Assembly (NCBI GenBank): GCA_014730235.1
Contig: WJIO01000097.1
Span: 1-6,547, forward strand
Length of the DNA: 6,547 nt
Reading direction: 5' to 3'
Origin: Candidatus Poribacteria bacterium
Lineage (GTDB): Bacteria; Poribacteria; DTPJ01; WJIO01
Under the pieces are notes generated by a model. That model worked only from the letters and a program-made list of their open reading frames with translations, was not told the origin of the DNA and made no database searches. The translations under genes and the position numbers were made by a program. Shown one piece after another: positions 1 through 6,547 of the stretch. How positions within the stretch are numbered: the stretch's first letter is position 1; every line of letters starts with the position of its first letter.

Positions 1-132
1 AATTTGAAGTGTGCAACACCGCATTTTAGGCTATATCCAGATGGGCGGTTGGAAGCAACTTGGGTACAGGAAATGATTAATTCACTATTTGAATACTTCG
101 TATCTAACACGGTAGAATTTATCAGAAGATAG
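1..132 (+). CDS. possible 3' end of an unidentified plus-strand gene (partial)
   Basis: Frame 1 is open from the left edge through 43 codons to a TAG at 130-132, while the other two plus frames stop within the first 30 bases. The translated tail contains a polar, proline-containing stretch (PHFRLYPDGRLEATW) and then a more hydrophobic, amphipathic end (MINSLFEYFV). It reads like the C-terminus of a real protein, but I do not recognise the family. If real, it converges on the TPR/HEAT gene and overlaps its last 48 bases. The minus strand is also open over part of this short stretch, so the open frame may be chance. The 5' end lies outside the window. Confidence 0.3.
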   Translation, partial: NLKCATPHFRLYPDGRLEATWVQEMINSLFEYFVSNTVEFIRR

Positions 133-2526
133 AGTTTTTTTCGCTTTTTGCATTTTCTTTTTAATGTCTCCCGACAGATCGCTACGTTTAGTAAGTTGAT
201 TCAGGGCATAGGCAGTAGCTACTTTAGTATCTAGTTTTCCAGTATCAGTATAGATTGCGAGTTTTTCTATTACTTTTCTAAGCATAGTTTCATCCCACAT
301 TTTATCTGATAGTTTGGCAACGCTCTGAATTGCTTGGGCAGCTACATCATCAACATCAAATAATAGAGAGAAGATTGTCAATTGAGACTCCAAATTTATT
401 GTCTCCAAATATTGGAAGCAATGAGCTGCACTTTGTCTTACCTTGGATTCCTTGCTGCCAGAAGCCTGTATTAGTAGTGAATTCAGCAAAATCATCCTAT
501 CGGTTATATTAGATACACTATATATCTTTGCTATTGCATATATTAAATCACCAACAATATCTTCTAAGCTAGTAGATGTCATCAATCCTGATTGTAGCTG
601 CTCCTTATCAATTTGATTTCCAGAGTCTATCATGCTTATTCTATCATTGAACATGGTCAACAATGTGTCCCATAGTTTGGATTGTAGAGGGGCATTAAAT
701 TCGGATGATATTTCGCTAATAGTCTGTATTATCAGCCGTCTATTATCCAGAAGGTTATGTTTGTTTTTCAATGCCAGAACCATCTTTTCCACTAGATCAG
801 GCTTGATTTGATCAGGGATCTGACCTTTCATATTAACCAATGTCTCAAGACCAGCATATAGAGATTTATTACCTCCTTCTTTATAATTCACCTGAGTGTC
901 TAAATTACCCATGATCCTATCTAATACAAATTTAAGTTTATCCTCTGGTACTTTTTCACCAAGCCACATAATATAGCCCAACTTATCCATTATATCCTTT
1001 TGTTTGAATACATGGTGTTTTAGTGCATCTATAAGCTGCTCTCTCCACTGACCTGATAGATTATTGGCGAGATTTGTTATAGATAGTTCCAGAATACGCC
1101 TTACACTATCGGATTTTTCTTCCTTCAGCCATGTTGCCATATGCCTAGCAATCATCTCCTGTGAATATTCTGGAATCATGCTCTGAAAAGCGTTAAAGCA
1201 TTTCGCTACATGTTCTCTTACAAACGGCTTTTCATGATTAGAGATGCCAATAAGTCTATCAACAACCTTTTCTATTACTTGCTCTGGTACACGTTGACCC
1301 TTTATGTATTTTTCCAGAGATTTCAGAGAAGTCCTCTTAACATCTCTATTCCTCAAAAAGCTGTATTCTCCGTCAGTCAGATCCAGCAGGTTTTGCATAA
1401 TATCAATCAACAACTCATCAGGCGATATGTCAAGTAAATCTCCCAAAGCGGCCGCCACACCAGTTTTTTTCATAACTGGTGCTTTTTCCAATCCTCTCAA
1501 CATGTCACAAAATATATCATGTATGCTGTCATATTCTATCCTTTCCACAATTGAGGTGGATATTTGCTGGATTTTGTCTGTATCTCCCAAATTTATATAG
1601 CAGCGCAATGCCTTTTCATATTCTTGAGATTCAGAAAACAAAGACGCTAGATTATCAGCAAGACCATGACCAAAGAGATTCCCTGCCATTCTATAAGCCC
1701 TATTCTCTCTTACCAAGTATATGTAGGCTTGCTGATAATCCTCCTTTCTCAAGTAATCAAGTGCCACAGAATGGTATCTCTCTATCTTAGTATAATTATT
1801 GTCTTGTTTTTTTCTGCTTCTTTCCCGCCTTTCCCTGTATCCTGAGACAAAAGCACCTAGTTCATAATTCATAAATATCAAATCCTGATAAATTAACATC
1901 TCTTCATGCGGCAGGTTCAGTTCAGTTGCCAGCTTTAGGGCTTCTTCATACTCTTTTTTCGCTTCCTCAGCACTACCATTCCTAAAACAGGCGTATGCTT
2001 TTGCCTTCTTGATATATAAGTGTAAAGGTAACTCCCTATTGACGATTTCTAGGGCATCTGTAAGTAAATTTCCCGCTTCTGTGTATTGCCCTTGGTGTAT
2101 CAGCACCTCGCTCTTTATAAGCGCGAACTTGCCCATTTGATTAGGATTCCAGTCTTGACTCTTGATTTCATCTAGTATTCTAGAAGCATCCCCTATTTTG
2201 TTTGCCTCTTCATATTTTTCCCAGTCCAGATATAAGTAAGCCAAACCTATCTTTGACTCGAAGATATTATCTTTGGCTGACTCATCTGCGAATACTTCGA
2301 TTGCCTGCTTATACCTGTTCTCAGCTTCTTTGTATTTGCAATCGGTATGATGAACTTTTGCAAGCATCAGGAGGGCTAAACCTTTACAAAGTTTGTCTTT
2401 TAGCTTTTGGGCTTCTTCTAGAGCACGTTCGAAGTTCTTTTTTGCCACATAGATGCTTCCTTGGCCTAATTCAAGCGATCCAATTTCCATATGGTGTTGA
2501 TACTTTTCATTTTCATTTTCAGACAT
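85..2526 (-). CDS. TPR and HEAT/ARM-like repeat scaffold protein
   Basis: This is an 813-residue, apparently cytoplasmic, all-helical repeat protein with no visible catalytic motif, signal peptide or membrane segment. Residues ~12-200 show TPR-like helix pairs with the usual small/aromatic pattern, for example AKKNFERALEEA, YKEAENRYKQAIEVF, GQYTEAGNLLTDALEI and AEEAKKEYEEALKLA. More follow at ~250-315 after a basic linker (RERRERSRKK, ~231-240). From ~350 to the end the repeats look HEAT/ARM-like (VREHVAKCFNAF, VRRILELSITNLA, VRQSAAHCFQYLE, VATAYALNQL). Such architectures usually bind proteins or nucleic acids, so a sensor, adaptor or regulatory role is the reasonable inference. The ATG start is supported by GGTGGTGA five bases upstream. 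It lies 42 bp downstream of the HD-domain gene on the same strand, so the two are probably co-transcribed and may act as partners. The stop is TAG. A specific function cannot be assigned. Confidence 0.9.
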   Translation of the reverse strand: MSENENEKYQHHMEIGSLELGQGSIYVAKKNFERALEEAQKLKDKLCKGLALLMLAKVHHTDCKYKEAENRYKQAIEVFADESAKDNIFESKIGLAYLYLDWEKYEEANKIGDASRILDEIKSQDWNPNQMGKFALIKSEVLIHQGQYTEAGNLLTDALEIVNRELPLHLYIKKAKAYACFRNGSAEEAKKEYEEALKLATELNLPHEEMLIYQDLIFMNYELGAFVSGYRERRERSRKKQDNNYTKIERYHSVALDYLRKEDYQQAYIYLVRENRAYRMAGNLFGHGLADNLASLFSESQEYEKALRCYINLGDTDKIQQISTSIVERIEYDSIHDIFCDMLRGLEKAPVMKKTGVAAALGDLLDISPDELLIDIMQNLLDLTDGEYSFLRNRDVKRTSLKSLEKYIKGQRVPEQVIEKVVDRLIGISNHEKPFVREHVAKCFNAFQSMIPEYSQEMIARHMATWLKEEKSDSVRRILELSITNLANNLSGQWREQLIDALKHHVFKQKDIMDKLGYIMWLGEKVPEDKLKFVLDRIMGNLDTQVNYKEGGNKSLYAGLETLVNMKGQIPDQIKPDLVEKMVLALKNKHNLLDNRRLIIQTISEISSEFNAPLQSKLWDTLLTMFNDRISMIDSGNQIDKEQLQSGLMTSTSLEDIVGDLIYAIAKIYSVSNITDRMILLNSLLIQASGSKESKVRQSAAHCFQYLETINLESQLTIFSLLFDVDDVAAQAIQSVAKLSDKMWDETMLRKVIEKLAIYTDTGKLDTKVATAYALNQLTKRSDLSGDIKKKMQKAKKTLSSDKFYRVRYEVFK

Positions 2527-2530
2527 TGTC

Positions 2531-2538
2531 TCACCACC
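2531..2538 (-). promoter_or_regulatory. ribosome-binding site of the TPR/HEAT gene
   Basis: On the minus strand this reads GGTGGTGA, four bases before the ATG at 2524-2526. GGTGA matches the classical archaeal Shine-Dalgarno complement of the 16S 3' end. It fixes the start of the gene and implies translation from a leadered, probably polycistronic, message. Confidence 0.7.
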
Positions 2539-2568
2539 TAACTACTTAAAAAGCCACTTTTACTATCT

Positions 2569-3792
2569 TCATAGCATTAACATTGAATCTACATTTTTCT
2601 CTTTGAATTTCTCATAAGAGCCCGCGGCCAATTCCAGCAGGGATTCATCCATTTCTTCTAGAGGTGGCTGTGGATTTAGCAAGCTCCTTGGCTGTCTGGT
2701 AACATCAGAACCTAGTTCTGCATTGTCTTTGTAATTTGTATTACGGCGCTCGTCTATCTTTATTGCAATGCCATACCTATCCAAATAGTCCACATGAAGA
2801 TATTCCTCAAGCTTTAGTTCATCAATAACCCATCTTGGTATATTATCATACAACCTTCTAGTTTTGTCATCTGGTTTACAGGGCAGATTAAAGGATAAGG
2901 AGATCCTATTTCTATCACTCACTTGCATGCCTGTGGTATAATGGTGCTTATACCAGTGGACTTTGGAATAGTCATTAATATACTGAAAAGCCATTTTTTG
3001 CATATCAATTCGCTCACGGGTTACATCCAACGCATCGCCTATCCGAAGTAGACGTGCCAAGAGTGATCTTCTGATACTATCAGATCCTGATGATTCATCT
3101 CCCAGTTCATCATACTCCTCCCTGTTAAGTCGATGTCCATAGCATATAGTAGCAACAAAGTGCTTGAGTTCCTGATCAAGTCCATTAATTGGAGTTGCCA
3201 AGTCACCATAGATGCTTCCAGCCATAATTAACTCATGGGAGATACGATTATGTTCTTTTCTAGTCACCTCTAGTATTCTTTGGCGTTCTTCGGGATTCAA
3301 ATTATCCCGTTTGGAAAAATTTACATTGGGGTATTCGTTTTGAAGTTTATCAAAATAAGGCAGACTCTCAAGATATTGGTAGTGCATACCGAGATCATGT
3401 AAATAGCATGAGGCTAGAAGTATATATATTTCTTTATCACATAATCTATTTGGTCCCTGCATAAGCTCTTGTATCAGATCGTTTATATATCCCTCTAACC
3501 GCCTTGAGTGGTTCACGCCATGATCTGTATAGTCCTTTATCATAGGATTTGTCAAGTGTCTTTCTGTCCAGATCGAGAGTTCCCTCAATTTGTTTAGATA
3601 GCCGTGCTCATTGTTCTTTTCCTCTAGCACGCCCATTAAATCTATATCTCTGTTCTTATATCCACTCGTCAATTGTGTAAACTCTCCCAACACCACTGAG
3701 TTATACTGGTAGAAATTAAGCACAAAGAGGATCATAGCCAGCAAAAAGCTGTACCATAGTATACCGCAGTTAGGATTCAGTGTAAAGCACAA
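2569..3792 (-). CDS. HD-domain (HD-CE-like) metal-dependent phosphohydrolase
   Basis: The 407-residue reading frame carries the metal-binding signature of an HD phosphohydrolase. The first histidine lies in YTDHGVNHSRR (H91/H95), the HD pair in YLHDLGMHY (H132-D133) and the distal aspartate in LLRIGDALDVT (D253). Extra histidines at HNRISH (181/186) and CYGH (220) could complete a binuclear site. The TDHGxxH motif resembles the HD-CE type, which occurs near Hsp90-like and other conflict-system proteins. Likely activity is hydrolysis of a nucleotide or phosphodiester, substrate unknown. Residues ~11-35 are strongly hydrophobic and could be one membrane segment. The start is uncertain: the longest frame begins at TTG (3790-3792). 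ATG codons follow at residue 20 (3733-3735) and residue 53 (3634-3636). Residue 53 leaves a normal lead into the HD domain and removes the hydrophobic part. No start has a convincing ribosome-binding site. Residues ~345-385 are polar and proline-containing, probably a flexible linker. It sits 40 bp (TTG start) or 196 bp (residue-53 start) downstream of the integrase and 42 bp upstream of the TPR/HEAT gene. The stop is TGA. Confidence 0.85.
   Translation of the reverse strand: MCFTLNPNCGILWYSFLLAMILFVLNFYQYNSVVLGEFTQLTSGYKNRDIDLMGVLEEKNNEHGYLNKLRELSIWTERHLTNPMIKDYTDHGVNHSRRLEGYINDLIQELMQGPNRLCDKEIYILLASCYLHDLGMHYQYLESLPYFDKLQNEYPNVNFSKRDNLNPEERQRILEVTRKEHNRISHELIMAGSIYGDLATPINGLDQELKHFVATICYGHRLNREEYDELGDESSGSDSIRRSLLARLLRIGDALDVTRERIDMQKMAFQYINDYSKVHWYKHHYTTGMQVSDRNRISLSFNLPCKPDDKTRRLYDNIPRWVIDELKLEEYLHVDYLDRYGIAIKIDERRNTNYKDNAELGSDVTRQPRSLLNPQPPLEEMDESLLELAAGSYEKFKEKNVDSMLML
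3656..3663 (-). promoter_or_regulatory. TATA-like element upstream of the internal ATG of the HD gene
   Basis: On the minus strand this reads GGATATAA. It is centred about 24 nt upstream of the residue-53 ATG (3634-3636), which is the spacing expected for an archaeal TATA box driving a leaderless message. It supports, weakly, a start at residue 53. AT-rich sequence makes chance TATA matches common. Confidence 0.25.
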
Positions 3793-3832: not shown

Positions 3833-5113
3833 TTATATCCTGCTTTTATTTACGGTTTTGATCAGCTTTTTCTTCAATCCCATATCAATAATTTCTTTTG
3901 CCAAAAGTCTTTGAATTTTTGGGTTCTTTAAAAGATCAGCCAGCAGATCATCTCCTTTGCTTCGTTCATCCTCAAGCTCAATTGCAGTATTGACATCAAG
4001 GATGCTTCCGCATTTATGGCAGAACCTGGCATCTTTGGAATTTATTGTTGAGCACCTTGGGCACTGTTTTGGCTTGAGTAGTGATTCCTTCTTCTTATCG
4101 GTTTTGATGCCATGCATCTCGAGTATCGCTTCATTGACATCGCTTGATATAAGGTGAGAATATTCGGATAGCATGGAACTGCTTGGAACCCATCCAAAAT
4201 AAACCTTTGCTTGCGCCTCATTAATCTGCTTATTGACAAGAAGATGGGTAACTCTTGTATGTCTGAAAAGATGAGGGTAGACTCGTTTTTTGATTTCTGC
4301 CTTTACCACAATCCTGAGAACTAATGCGCGGAATGCAGAATATTCCATACGCTTTCCTTTATTCCTATTTCCCATCATTATCCATAGCGGAGCATCAGGC
4401 TTATCCTTGAGTGGATGGGAATTAAGCCAATGAGTTAGATATGCATCTGATACCACAATGCGTGGCGTCCTATGTCCTGTTTTTCCTTCTAAGTCTACAA
4501 GGTAACCATATTTGTCTTTTGTTACCTCTTTTATGGATAATCCGCCGATCTCTCCGATTCTTGCGCCCAGTTCATAAAGCATGGATATAAACGCCTTGTC
4601 TCGCAGATGTTCAGAAGAATCAATTAGCTTGTTTATCTCTACTTCTGTCAGAATATCAGATGCTTTGATTTTTGGTTGATCCTTCTTTTTCAAAGTGCAT
4701 CTCATCCACGAGATGATCTTTGGGTATTCCATTTTATTTCGATATTCGTCTCCAAATACCTGCCATTTATAGAATTTCTTAAGAATAATCTTGTAACTGT
4801 GTTTTGTCCAGGGAGAGCAATCTTCTCTGCTGTCTATTTTCATAACAACATTTTTCAGATCATCCTTTGTAGCTTTGTTAAAGTCTTTTTTCAGGTAATC
4901 CCTTGCCAATATTAACAATATTGTTATGATTTTGATCCGACGGGATTTGCTAAGAGCTTCCATGAAACAGTTTTTATCAAATTGGATGATCAATTCTTTG
5001 TTTGCTTCAGAAATAGCTTCTCTTTGGACTCGTGCTTTAAGTTGTTCCAGCCTTTTATTATGTCCATAAATATCGTTTTTGGGCTTCATACTACTTGTTA
5101 TGGGCCAACTCAT
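3833..5113 (-). CDS. tyrosine recombinase/integrase with C-terminal zinc ribbon
   Basis: This 426-residue site-specific recombinase should cut and rejoin DNA through a 3'-phosphotyrosine link. Residues ~30-120 form the helical SAM-like core-binding domain and ~155-330 the catalytic domain. The full catalytic set is visible: R185 (GARIGE), K211 (EGKTGH), H281 and R284 (HLFRHT), W308 (FGW, in place of the usual histidine) and nucleophile Y318 (SEYSHL). C351/C354 and C365/C368 (CPRC...CHKC) form a zinc ribbon, and a charged helical tail follows to the end. The FGW...M...Y.HL pattern plus zinc ribbon is familiar from archaeal integrases, especially in Methanosarcinales. All catalytic residues are present, so the enzyme looks active. 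The ATG at 5111-5113 has no clear Shine-Dalgarno but a good TATA-like box upstream. A second ATG at residue 9 is possible. The stop is TAA. It is the first gene of the minus-strand block and probably moves it. Confidence 0.95.
   Translation of the reverse strand: MSWPITSSMKPKNDIYGHNKRLEQLKARVQREAISEANKELIIQFDKNCFMEALSKSRRIKIITILLILARDYLKKDFNKATKDDLKNVVMKIDSREDCSPWTKHSYKIILKKFYKWQVFGDEYRNKMEYPKIISWMRCTLKKKDQPKIKASDILTEVEINKLIDSSEHLRDKAFISMLYELGARIGEIGGLSIKEVTKDKYGYLVDLEGKTGHRTPRIVVSDAYLTHWLNSHPLKDKPDAPLWIMMGNRNKGKRMEYSAFRALVLRIVVKAEIKKRVYPHLFRHTRVTHLLVNKQINEAQAKVYFGWVPSSSMLSEYSHLISSDVNEAILEMHGIKTDKKKESLLKPKQCPRCSTINSKDARFCHKCGSILDVNTAIELEDERSKGDDLLADLLKNPKIQRLLAKEIIDMGLKKKLIKTVNKSRI
4010..4063 (-). 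other. zinc-ribbon segment of the integrase
   Basis: This encodes residues 351-368, with two CxxC knuckles 10 residues apart (C351, C354, C365, C368). It lies after the catalytic tyrosine. By family analogy it would bind one zinc ion and contact DNA or a partner subunit. Confidence 0.85.
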
Positions 5114-5465: not shown

Positions 5466-5537
5466 ATGTCTAGAAGCTCTATTATACTAATGGCTATATT
5501 AGTAATATTGATGATTTATTGTTTAGATGCTAACGCT
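5466..5537 (+). other. signal peptide of the beta-helix protein
   Basis: The 24 codons encode an arginine-bearing head, about 14 hydrophobic residues and a DANA end, with predicted cleavage after A24 (A-x-A rule). This indicates Sec-dependent export. A cysteine at residue 19 is not in a lipobox context. Confidence 0.75.
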
Positions 5538-6547
5538 GTCGCTCCCCTGCAACTAGTTAAATCACAATGTTATGTGGGGCCACAATCTCAGAAACTTGGT
5601 GGAACAATTATAGTGTATTTTCGAATTCACAATCCAAATCCATTCTCTGTAAAGATAGGTCTTGGCTGCTCTATCAAACCTGTAGAAGGAGAGTGGATTG
5701 ATGATAAACCTCATGATGAAGAACCTTCAGTACCTCATGGATATAGCACCCAATCCAGATACTTTGATATACCTTCATACATATCAAATGGATTATATAC
5801 CGTAGGATATGGCATTATGGACGGCGGAATATCAGGCCCCTATTTTGATACTCACGAGAGCAATGACTTGACTGTGGTATCTAGCTCCAAAACGGTCTAT
5901 GTTGATGATAGCAATTCTGCTGGCCCATGGAAAGGTACATCAAACAATCCCTTTCAATATATACAGGATGGCATATATGTAGCAGTGGATGGAGATACTG
6001 TGCTTGTAGCTGATGGAGAGTATACGGGAACGGGAAATGTAAATCTGACTTTTAAAGGTAAAGCTATCACAGTCAAATCTATGAATGGTGCTGAGAATTG
6101 CGTCATTGATTGCCAAGGTTCAGAGAATACCCGTGGATTTTGGTTCCGTGACAATGAGGGCACAGGTTCGATCTTGGATGGATTTACCATACAAAACGGT
6201 AATATTGAAGGTACACAACCTATTAACTACAACGGCGGAGGGATCCGCTGCGATAGTTCCTCTCCAATAATAAGAAATAATATTATCACCAATAACTCAG
6301 CTCTTCATTATGGAGGTGGTATTTATGCCTATTACTCATCTTCAATCATCGAAAATAATATTATTAAAGAAAATTCTACTGATGTAAATGGCGGTGGCAT
6401 TCTTCTTAGAAAATGCTCTTCATTAATTATAAAGAATAATATGATTACAAAGAATTCGTCTCATATGGCCGGAGGAATAGACTGTGATACCTCAAGTCTA
6501 GAAATAAATGGTAACAAAATTATAGAAAACTATGCACATGCTTCTGC
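5466..6547 (+). CDS. secreted right-handed parallel beta-helix protein (5' part; runs off right edge)
   Basis: The frame is open from the ATG at 5466 for 360 codons to the window edge with no stop. Residues 1-24 are a signal peptide: SRSS head, hydrophobic core (IILMAILVILMIY) and an ANA cleavage site before V25. Residues ~27-140 are a beta-rich, Ig-like-looking domain that I cannot assign to a family. From ~143 there is the classic opening of a surface beta-helix protein: VYVDDSN, then F.YIQDGI, DGDTVLVADGEYTG, FKGKAITVKS, IDCQGS and LDGFTIQNG. From residue 257, four coils repeat every 26 residues with GGGI or AGGI at the turn (I260, I286, I312, I338) and an NNxI.xN motif. Such proteins are exported and may bind or cleave polysaccharide, form a surface layer or act in adhesion. 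No catalytic residues can be named. It is divergent from the integrase and probably unrelated to it. Confidence 0.9.
   Translation, partial: MSRSSIILMAILVILMIYCLDANAVAPLQLVKSQCYVGPQSQKLGGTIIVYFRIHNPNPFSVKIGLGCSIKPVEGEWIDDKPHDEEPSVPHGYSTQSRYFDIPSYISNGLYTVGYGIMDGGISGPYFDTHESNDLTVVSSSKTVYVDDSNSAGPWKGTSNNPFQYIQDGIYVAVDGDTVLVADGEYTGTGNVNLTFKGKAITVKSMNGAENCVIDCQGSENTRGFWFRDNEGTGSILDGFTIQNGNIEGTQPINYNGGGIRCDSSSPIIRNNIITNNSALHYGGGIYAYYSSSIIENNIIKENSTDVNGGGILLRKCSSLIIKNNMITKNSSHMAGGIDCDTSSLEINGNKIIENYAHAS
6234..6545 (+). repeat. four 78-bp (26-residue) beta-helix coil repeats
   Basis: Units begin at 6234, 6312, 6390 and 6468, each encoding one coil. Each has G/A-G-G-I at its start and then S-S near the middle. 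An N-N/G-N-x-I-x-x-N ladder follows. The period is exactly 26 codons with no indels across the four visible units, while DNA identity between units is modest. The array probably continues past the window edge. Confidence 0.75.

What the first reader, a model, noticed from the sequence alone, without database searches (positions are those of the whole stretch)
85..3792. HD phosphohydrolase plus TPR/HEAT scaffold: a two-gene cassette behind an integrase
The two genes are 42 bp apart on one strand, the second has a strong GGTGA ribosome-binding site, and both follow an apparently intact integrase. The HD protein keeps its metal-binding residues (H91/H95, H132-D133, D253) and resembles HD-CE-like enzymes seen in conflict-system neighbourhoods. 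A large TPR/HEAT protein with no catalytic motif is a plausible sensor or regulator for it. I do not know a named system with exactly this pair, so it is a candidate undescribed defence or signalling module carried by a mobile element.
Basis: partly seen in the sequence, partly recalled or inferred. Interest (0 to 1): 0.6.

Follow-up and report, generated by a model that had tools for sequence, protein, structure and literature searches.

The report
Split HD-hydrolase and repeat-scaffold gene pair
Two neighbouring bacterial genes, one for a metal-dependent phosphate-cutting enzyme and one for a large spring-like binding protein, look like a split version of a single immune-type protein found whole in other bacteria, so they probably form an undescribed sensor-plus-effector pair, although no function has been tested.

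Summary
The two genes are real. The upstream one encodes a standalone HD-CE phosphohydrolase (Pfam PF24391, 3.8e-34); the downstream one, 42 bp away on the same strand, encodes an all-helical TPR/HEAT protein. The HD ligand set is complete (H..HD..H..H..D). The HD start is probably 3636, not 3792, with its own promoter-like site.

No second two-gene copy was found, and neither gene has a close relative in any collection searched. However, the nearest HD relatives are N-terminal domains of single large proteins: HD-CE+TPR+HEAT (L095; L093 by alignment), HD-CE+NB-ARC+TPR, HD-CE+NACHT+pentapeptide. The window's HEAT half aligns at the expected collinear offset with the two fused proteins (z about 4 each; control repeat proteins at most 1.7). 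The window therefore looks like a split HD-CE-TPR-HEAT protein, in which HD-CE takes the effector place of STAND/NLR-type immune proteins but no NTPase switch is present.

Defence is the best reading but rests on domain company. The window is the entire 6.5-kb contig, so 'carried by a mobile element' is untested: the integrase has a 66% paralogue elsewhere in the genome without this pair. New variant of a known kind.

The parts
2569..3636 (-). HD-CE phosphohydrolase gene, likely true extent (355 aa from ATG 3636; longest ORF from TTG 3792)
   Evidence: Pfam PF24391 3.8e-34; N-terminus matches relatives
3637..3792 (-). Upstream part of the long ORF, probably untranslated leader; holds a promoter-like site at 3786-3758
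   Evidence: inference
3036..3510 (-). Span of the conserved metal-ligand set H95, H132-D133, H181, H220, D253 (407-aa numbering)
   Evidence: invariant in six near relatives; the H..HD..H..H..D pattern is invariant or nearly so in 35 HD-CE proteins
85..2526 (-). TPR (about residues 1-310) plus HEAT (about 390-800) alpha-solenoid protein, 813 aa, no catalytic domain detected
   Evidence: helices only in a low-confidence model
2530..2539 (-). Ribosome-binding site AGGTGGTGAG of the TPR/HEAT gene
   Evidence: sequence
3833..5113 (-). Tyrosine recombinase with C-terminal zinc ribbon, archaeal-virus-like; adjacent, belonging to the module unproven

Best explanation
The two genes encode one functional unit: a split form of a fused HD-CE + TPR + HEAT protein. 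The alpha-solenoid (TPR/HEAT) protein binds the HD-CE enzyme and a trigger, probably a protein or complex of an invading element; binding switches on or releases the HD active site, which hydrolyses a nucleotide or phosphodiester and stops growth or replication. It works like a STAND/NLR-type immune receptor with an HD effector, but without the NTPase switch. Shown: both genes, complete HD ligand set, conserved gene order HD then repeats, fused counterparts with collinear similarity, HD-CE in the effector position of STAND proteins. Inferred: physical interaction, activation, substrate, trigger, and defence as the purpose.
For: HD-CE 3.8e-34 and TPR/HEAT. Nearest HD relatives are N-terminal domains of large proteins: L095 HD-CE+TPR+HEAT, L093 HD-CE+alpha-solenoid, L002 HD-CE+NB-ARC+TPR, L094 HD-CE+NACHT+pentapeptide. 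Window TPR/HEAT aligns with L093 (275-542 vs 617-900) and L095 (293-808 vs 659-1213), at offsets near the 355-aa HD length; HEAT-half z = 4.0 each, 2/300 and 1/300 shuffles, controls z <= 1.7. HD tree groups the window with STAND- and TPR/HEAT-linked HD-CEs (84/93). Separate-gene and fused forms also exist for HD-CE and HATPase (L053 vs L097, L103, L104, L105). L095's gene follows a Trypsin_2 + P-loop-like gene; L093 lies near TraD/TrwB-like and Replic_Relax genes.
Against: No second two-gene copy; no close relatives of either protein. TPR/HEAT similarity to the fusions is weak (about 0.4-2 bits by phmmer) and repeat proteins can align by repeat periodicity. L093's repeats are not recognised by Pfam. 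The contig shows no other defence gene. Structure predictions failed.
Confidence: 0.6

Rival explanations
1. The HD enzyme and TPR/HEAT protein are a non-defence signalling pair: the HD domain turns over a cellular (cyclic) nucleotide and the solenoid scaffolds it in a host process.
For: HD domains commonly act in nucleotide signalling (established knowledge); some proteins matched by PF24391 also carry Ppx-GppA or metallophosphatase domains. No phage was involved in any evidence here.
Against: Patchy distribution: absent from 96 related genomes at usable similarity, and the company kept by the nearest relatives is STAND NTPases and mobile-element genes, which is unlike housekeeping genes.
Confidence: 0.2
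2. Adjacency without functional linkage: an HD-CE gene that happens to lie beside an unrelated TPR/HEAT gene on a small contig.
For: Only one copy of the exact two-gene arrangement is known; contig is 6.5 kb.
Against: Same strand, 42-bp gap, own ribosome-binding site, no terminator-like site on this strand between them; same-order fusions in other bacteria with collinear similarity.
Confidence: 0.12
3. The integrase, HD and TPR/HEAT genes form one integrative element and the pair serves the element (superinfection exclusion or stabilisation).
For: All three genes lie on one strand; the integrase resembles those of archaeal pleolipo-like viruses and tailed viruses.
Against: Integrase paralogue (66%) in the same genome has other neighbours; DNA similarity between the two loci stops at the integrase gene; no att repeats, tRNA or other element genes.
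Confidence: 0.08

Closest known systems
HD-CE family (Pfam PF24391)
   Same: Full-length domain match 3.8e-34 and the complete conserved H..HD..H..H..D set
   Different: Standalone protein followed by a separate TPR/HEAT gene; most large relatives are fusions
Fused HD-CE+TPR+HEAT proteins L095 (1258 aa) and L093 (1193 aa) of another bacterial phylum
   Same: Domain order, total length (355+813 vs 1193/1258 aa), collinear weak similarity
   Different: One gene instead of two; HD identity only 25-29%
STAND/NLR-type proteins with HD-CE at the N-terminus (L002 NB-ARC+TPR, L094 NACHT+pentapeptide, L058 nSTAND1+HEAT)
   Same: HD-CE as N-terminal (effector-position) domain ahead of a repeat sensor region
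   Different: The window has no NTPase domain in either protein
PADLOC RT_UG24 (DRT candidate)
   Same: Its HD-like region matches the window HD (3.7e-9)
   Different: No reverse transcriptase in the window
HD-CE with HATPase, and Dcm / HD-CE / ORC-CDC6-like gene sets
   Same: HD-CE domain
   Different: Different partners and more distant HD branches

Membership tests
HD-CE (PF24391) | Score above Pfam gathering cut-off over the full profile | tested here: met
   119 bits against a cut-off of 27, profile positions 3-262 of 263
HD-CE (PF24391) | Conserved metal-ligand residues | tested here: met
   H95, H132, D133, H181, H220, D253
HD-CE (PF24391) | Phosphohydrolase activity | not testable with these tools
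   needs purified protein
STAND/NLR-type immune receptor | STAND NTPase domain (NB-ARC, NACHT or nSTAND) | tested here: not met
   no NTPase family in either protein
STAND/NLR-type immune receptor | Effector domain followed by C-terminal repeat sensor | tested here: met
   HD-CE then TPR/HEAT, in two genes; works like, is not a member
HD-CE+TPR+HEAT fusion group (L093, L095) | HD-CE, TPR and HEAT parts in that order | tested here: met
   L093's repeats only by alignment
HD-CE+TPR+HEAT fusion group (L093, L095) | Significant homology of the repeat parts | tested here: inconclusive
   z about 4 and collinear, but weak by phmmer
Named anti-phage defence system | Match of both components to a PADLOC system | tested here: not met
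   only generic TPR 1.3e-4 and the HD part of RT_UG24
Integrative mobile element | Attachment sites and element boundaries | tested here: inconclusive
   contig too short; no att-like repeats or tRNA

The most novel reading that the evidence does not exclude
An undescribed, NTPase-free bacterial immune module in which a helical TPR/HEAT receptor directly controls an HD-CE nucleotide-hydrolysing effector, found split in two genes here and fused in at least one other phylum.
Probability: 0.4. Interest if true: 0.62.

Novelty: new variant of a known kind. Interest (0 to 1): 0.45.

Why it matters
HD-CE domains appear here in the effector position of STAND proteins, next to HATPases, and with CRISPR CARF proteins, yet I found no open paper describing what they cut. 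A two-gene form that separates the enzyme from its presumed sensor would make that question easy to test: the HD protein alone gives the basal activity, and adding the TPR/HEAT protein shows how it is regulated.

Tried and rejected
Close relatives of either gene in plasmids, phages, IMG/VR or GTDB contigs: none but one distant HD match. Housekeeping explanation by conservation in relatives: rejected, the pair is absent from 96 other genomes. Archaeal contamination of the bin, suggested by the archaeal-type integrase: not settled, but a 66% paralogue sits in the same bin on a contig whose ORFs include an SSB-like gene (by eye), and the bin has a bacterial 16S; tetranucleotide correlation of this short contig is uninformative. 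Structure prediction of both proteins: mean pLDDT 36 and 42, so no fold search was made. PDB sequence profile: only weak HD hits such as YedJ 0.0013. Domain-frequency control: HEAT/TPR in HD-CE proteins is not strongly enriched overall (3/35 each against TPR 2/41 in neighbours); the link is specific to the nearest relatives. Two-gene HD-CE/NB-ARC-TPR at L124: in-frame TAA within an otherwise continuous frame, so it may be a broken gene and is not counted as a second split case. Literature: 'HD-CE' is not found in the open library in this sense, nor a described HD+TPR/HEAT system.

Full report
Observation. The window holds, on the minus strand, an integrase (5113-3833), an HD ORF (3792-2569) and a large ORF (2526-85). 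HD and large ORF are 42 bp apart and the latter has AGGTGG 7 nt before its ATG. Pfam assigns HD-CE (PF24391, 3.8e-34) to the first and TPR plus HEAT repeats to the second; no NTPase or other catalytic family was found in the second. The window is a complete 6547-bp contig of a 5.5-Mb bacterial MAG, so nothing can be said about what lies beyond it.

Refinements. Aligned with relatives, the HD protein starts at M53 (ATG 3636); the TTG at 3792 is only the longest reading. A 10/12 sigma-70-like site (TTTACA-17-TATACT) lies at 3786-3758, inside the supposed N-terminus, though such sites are only slightly more frequent than in shuffled sequence. The ligands are H95, H132-D133, H181, H220, D253; the same H..HD..H..H..D pattern is invariant or nearly so across 35 HD-CE proteins. 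By analogy with known HD enzymes this suggests a binuclear metal site (inference).

Relatives. Neither protein has close relatives in plasmids, phages, viral contigs or 96 other genomes. HD-CE as a family is widespread but patchy: 17 of 84 genomes of the window's phylum and 66 of 291 of another (this includes weak matches). Ranked by similarity to the window HD, the nearest are: L002 (Riflebacteria) HD-CE+NB-ARC+TPR; L094 HD-CE+NA-iREase1+NACHT+pentapeptide; L093, 1193 aa; L095, 1258 aa, HD-CE+TPR+HEAT. Further out are HD-CE+nSTAND1+HEAT (L058, a genome of the same order), HD-CE+HEAT (L098), HD-CE+HATPase (L097, L103, L104, L105) and its apparent two-gene form (L053), and a Dcm / HD-CE / ORC-CDC6-like / CARF-like gene set (L099 and similar). 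An HD tree groups the window with the STAND- and TPR/HEAT-linked members (support 84/93), with poor resolution inside the group and long branches.

The key test. If the window is a split form of the L093/L095 type, its second gene should align with their C-terminal parts at an offset of about 355 residues. It does: window 275-542 with L093 617-900, and window 293-808 with L095 659-1213. For the HEAT half alone, scores exceed shuffled targets with z = 4.0 in both cases (2/300 and 1/300 shuffles reach them), whereas HEAT or TPR proteins of other origin give z of 1.7 or less. The TPR half cannot be used this way because unrelated TPR proteins score higher. By phmmer the repeat parts are not significant, so homology is likely but not proven; the shared order and length are the firmer facts.

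Mechanism. HD-CE occupies the effector end of several STAND-type proteins whose other end is a repeat sensor. The window keeps effector and repeat region but has no NTPase. The most economical model is a direct sensor-effector pair: the solenoid binds a trigger and the HD protein, and the HD site then hydrolyses a nucleotide or phosphodiester, giving growth arrest or abortive infection. The enzyme's substrate, the trigger and the defence role are inferences from domain company. L095 lies beside a Trypsin_2 gene with an apparent P-loop, and L093 near conjugation-type genes, which fits but does not prove a conflict role.

Mobile element. The integrase is most like those of archaeal viruses (93% coverage, 34% identity with Geoglobus pleomorphic virus 1). 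A 66% paralogue in the same genome has other neighbours, and DNA similarity ends with the gene. No attachment repeats or tRNA were found. The cassette-behind-integrase arrangement is therefore an observation, not evidence of carriage.

Verdict.

Noticed in passing
window 3833-5113 and G000:C384 (L049:7234-8484): Two 66%-identical zinc-ribbon tyrosine recombinases of archaeal-virus type in a bacterial MAG; possible cross-domain transfer or bin contamination.
   Followed up: partly
window 5466-6545(+): Divergent gene for a secreted beta-helix-like protein (DUF1565/NosD repeats), running off the contig.
   Followed up: no
L099:4682-9646, L100:3910-8823, L101:4034-9190, L056:8700-13427: Recurrent gene set: C5-cytosine methylase, standalone HD-CE-like protein, ORC-CDC6-like ATPase, and a fourth gene matching CARF6 in L099; looks like a conserved conflict system in two phyla.
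   Followed up: partly
G000:C128 (L038:4308-7580): Proteins starting with the APE2256-type 'VGTSLL' motif, one of them with an HD-CE match, beside CRISPR-like genes in the window's own genome.
   Followed up: no
L124:2276-5476: HD-CE and NB-ARC/TPR reading frames separated by an in-frame TAA; fused in relative L002. Split or broken gene unclear.
   Followed up: partly
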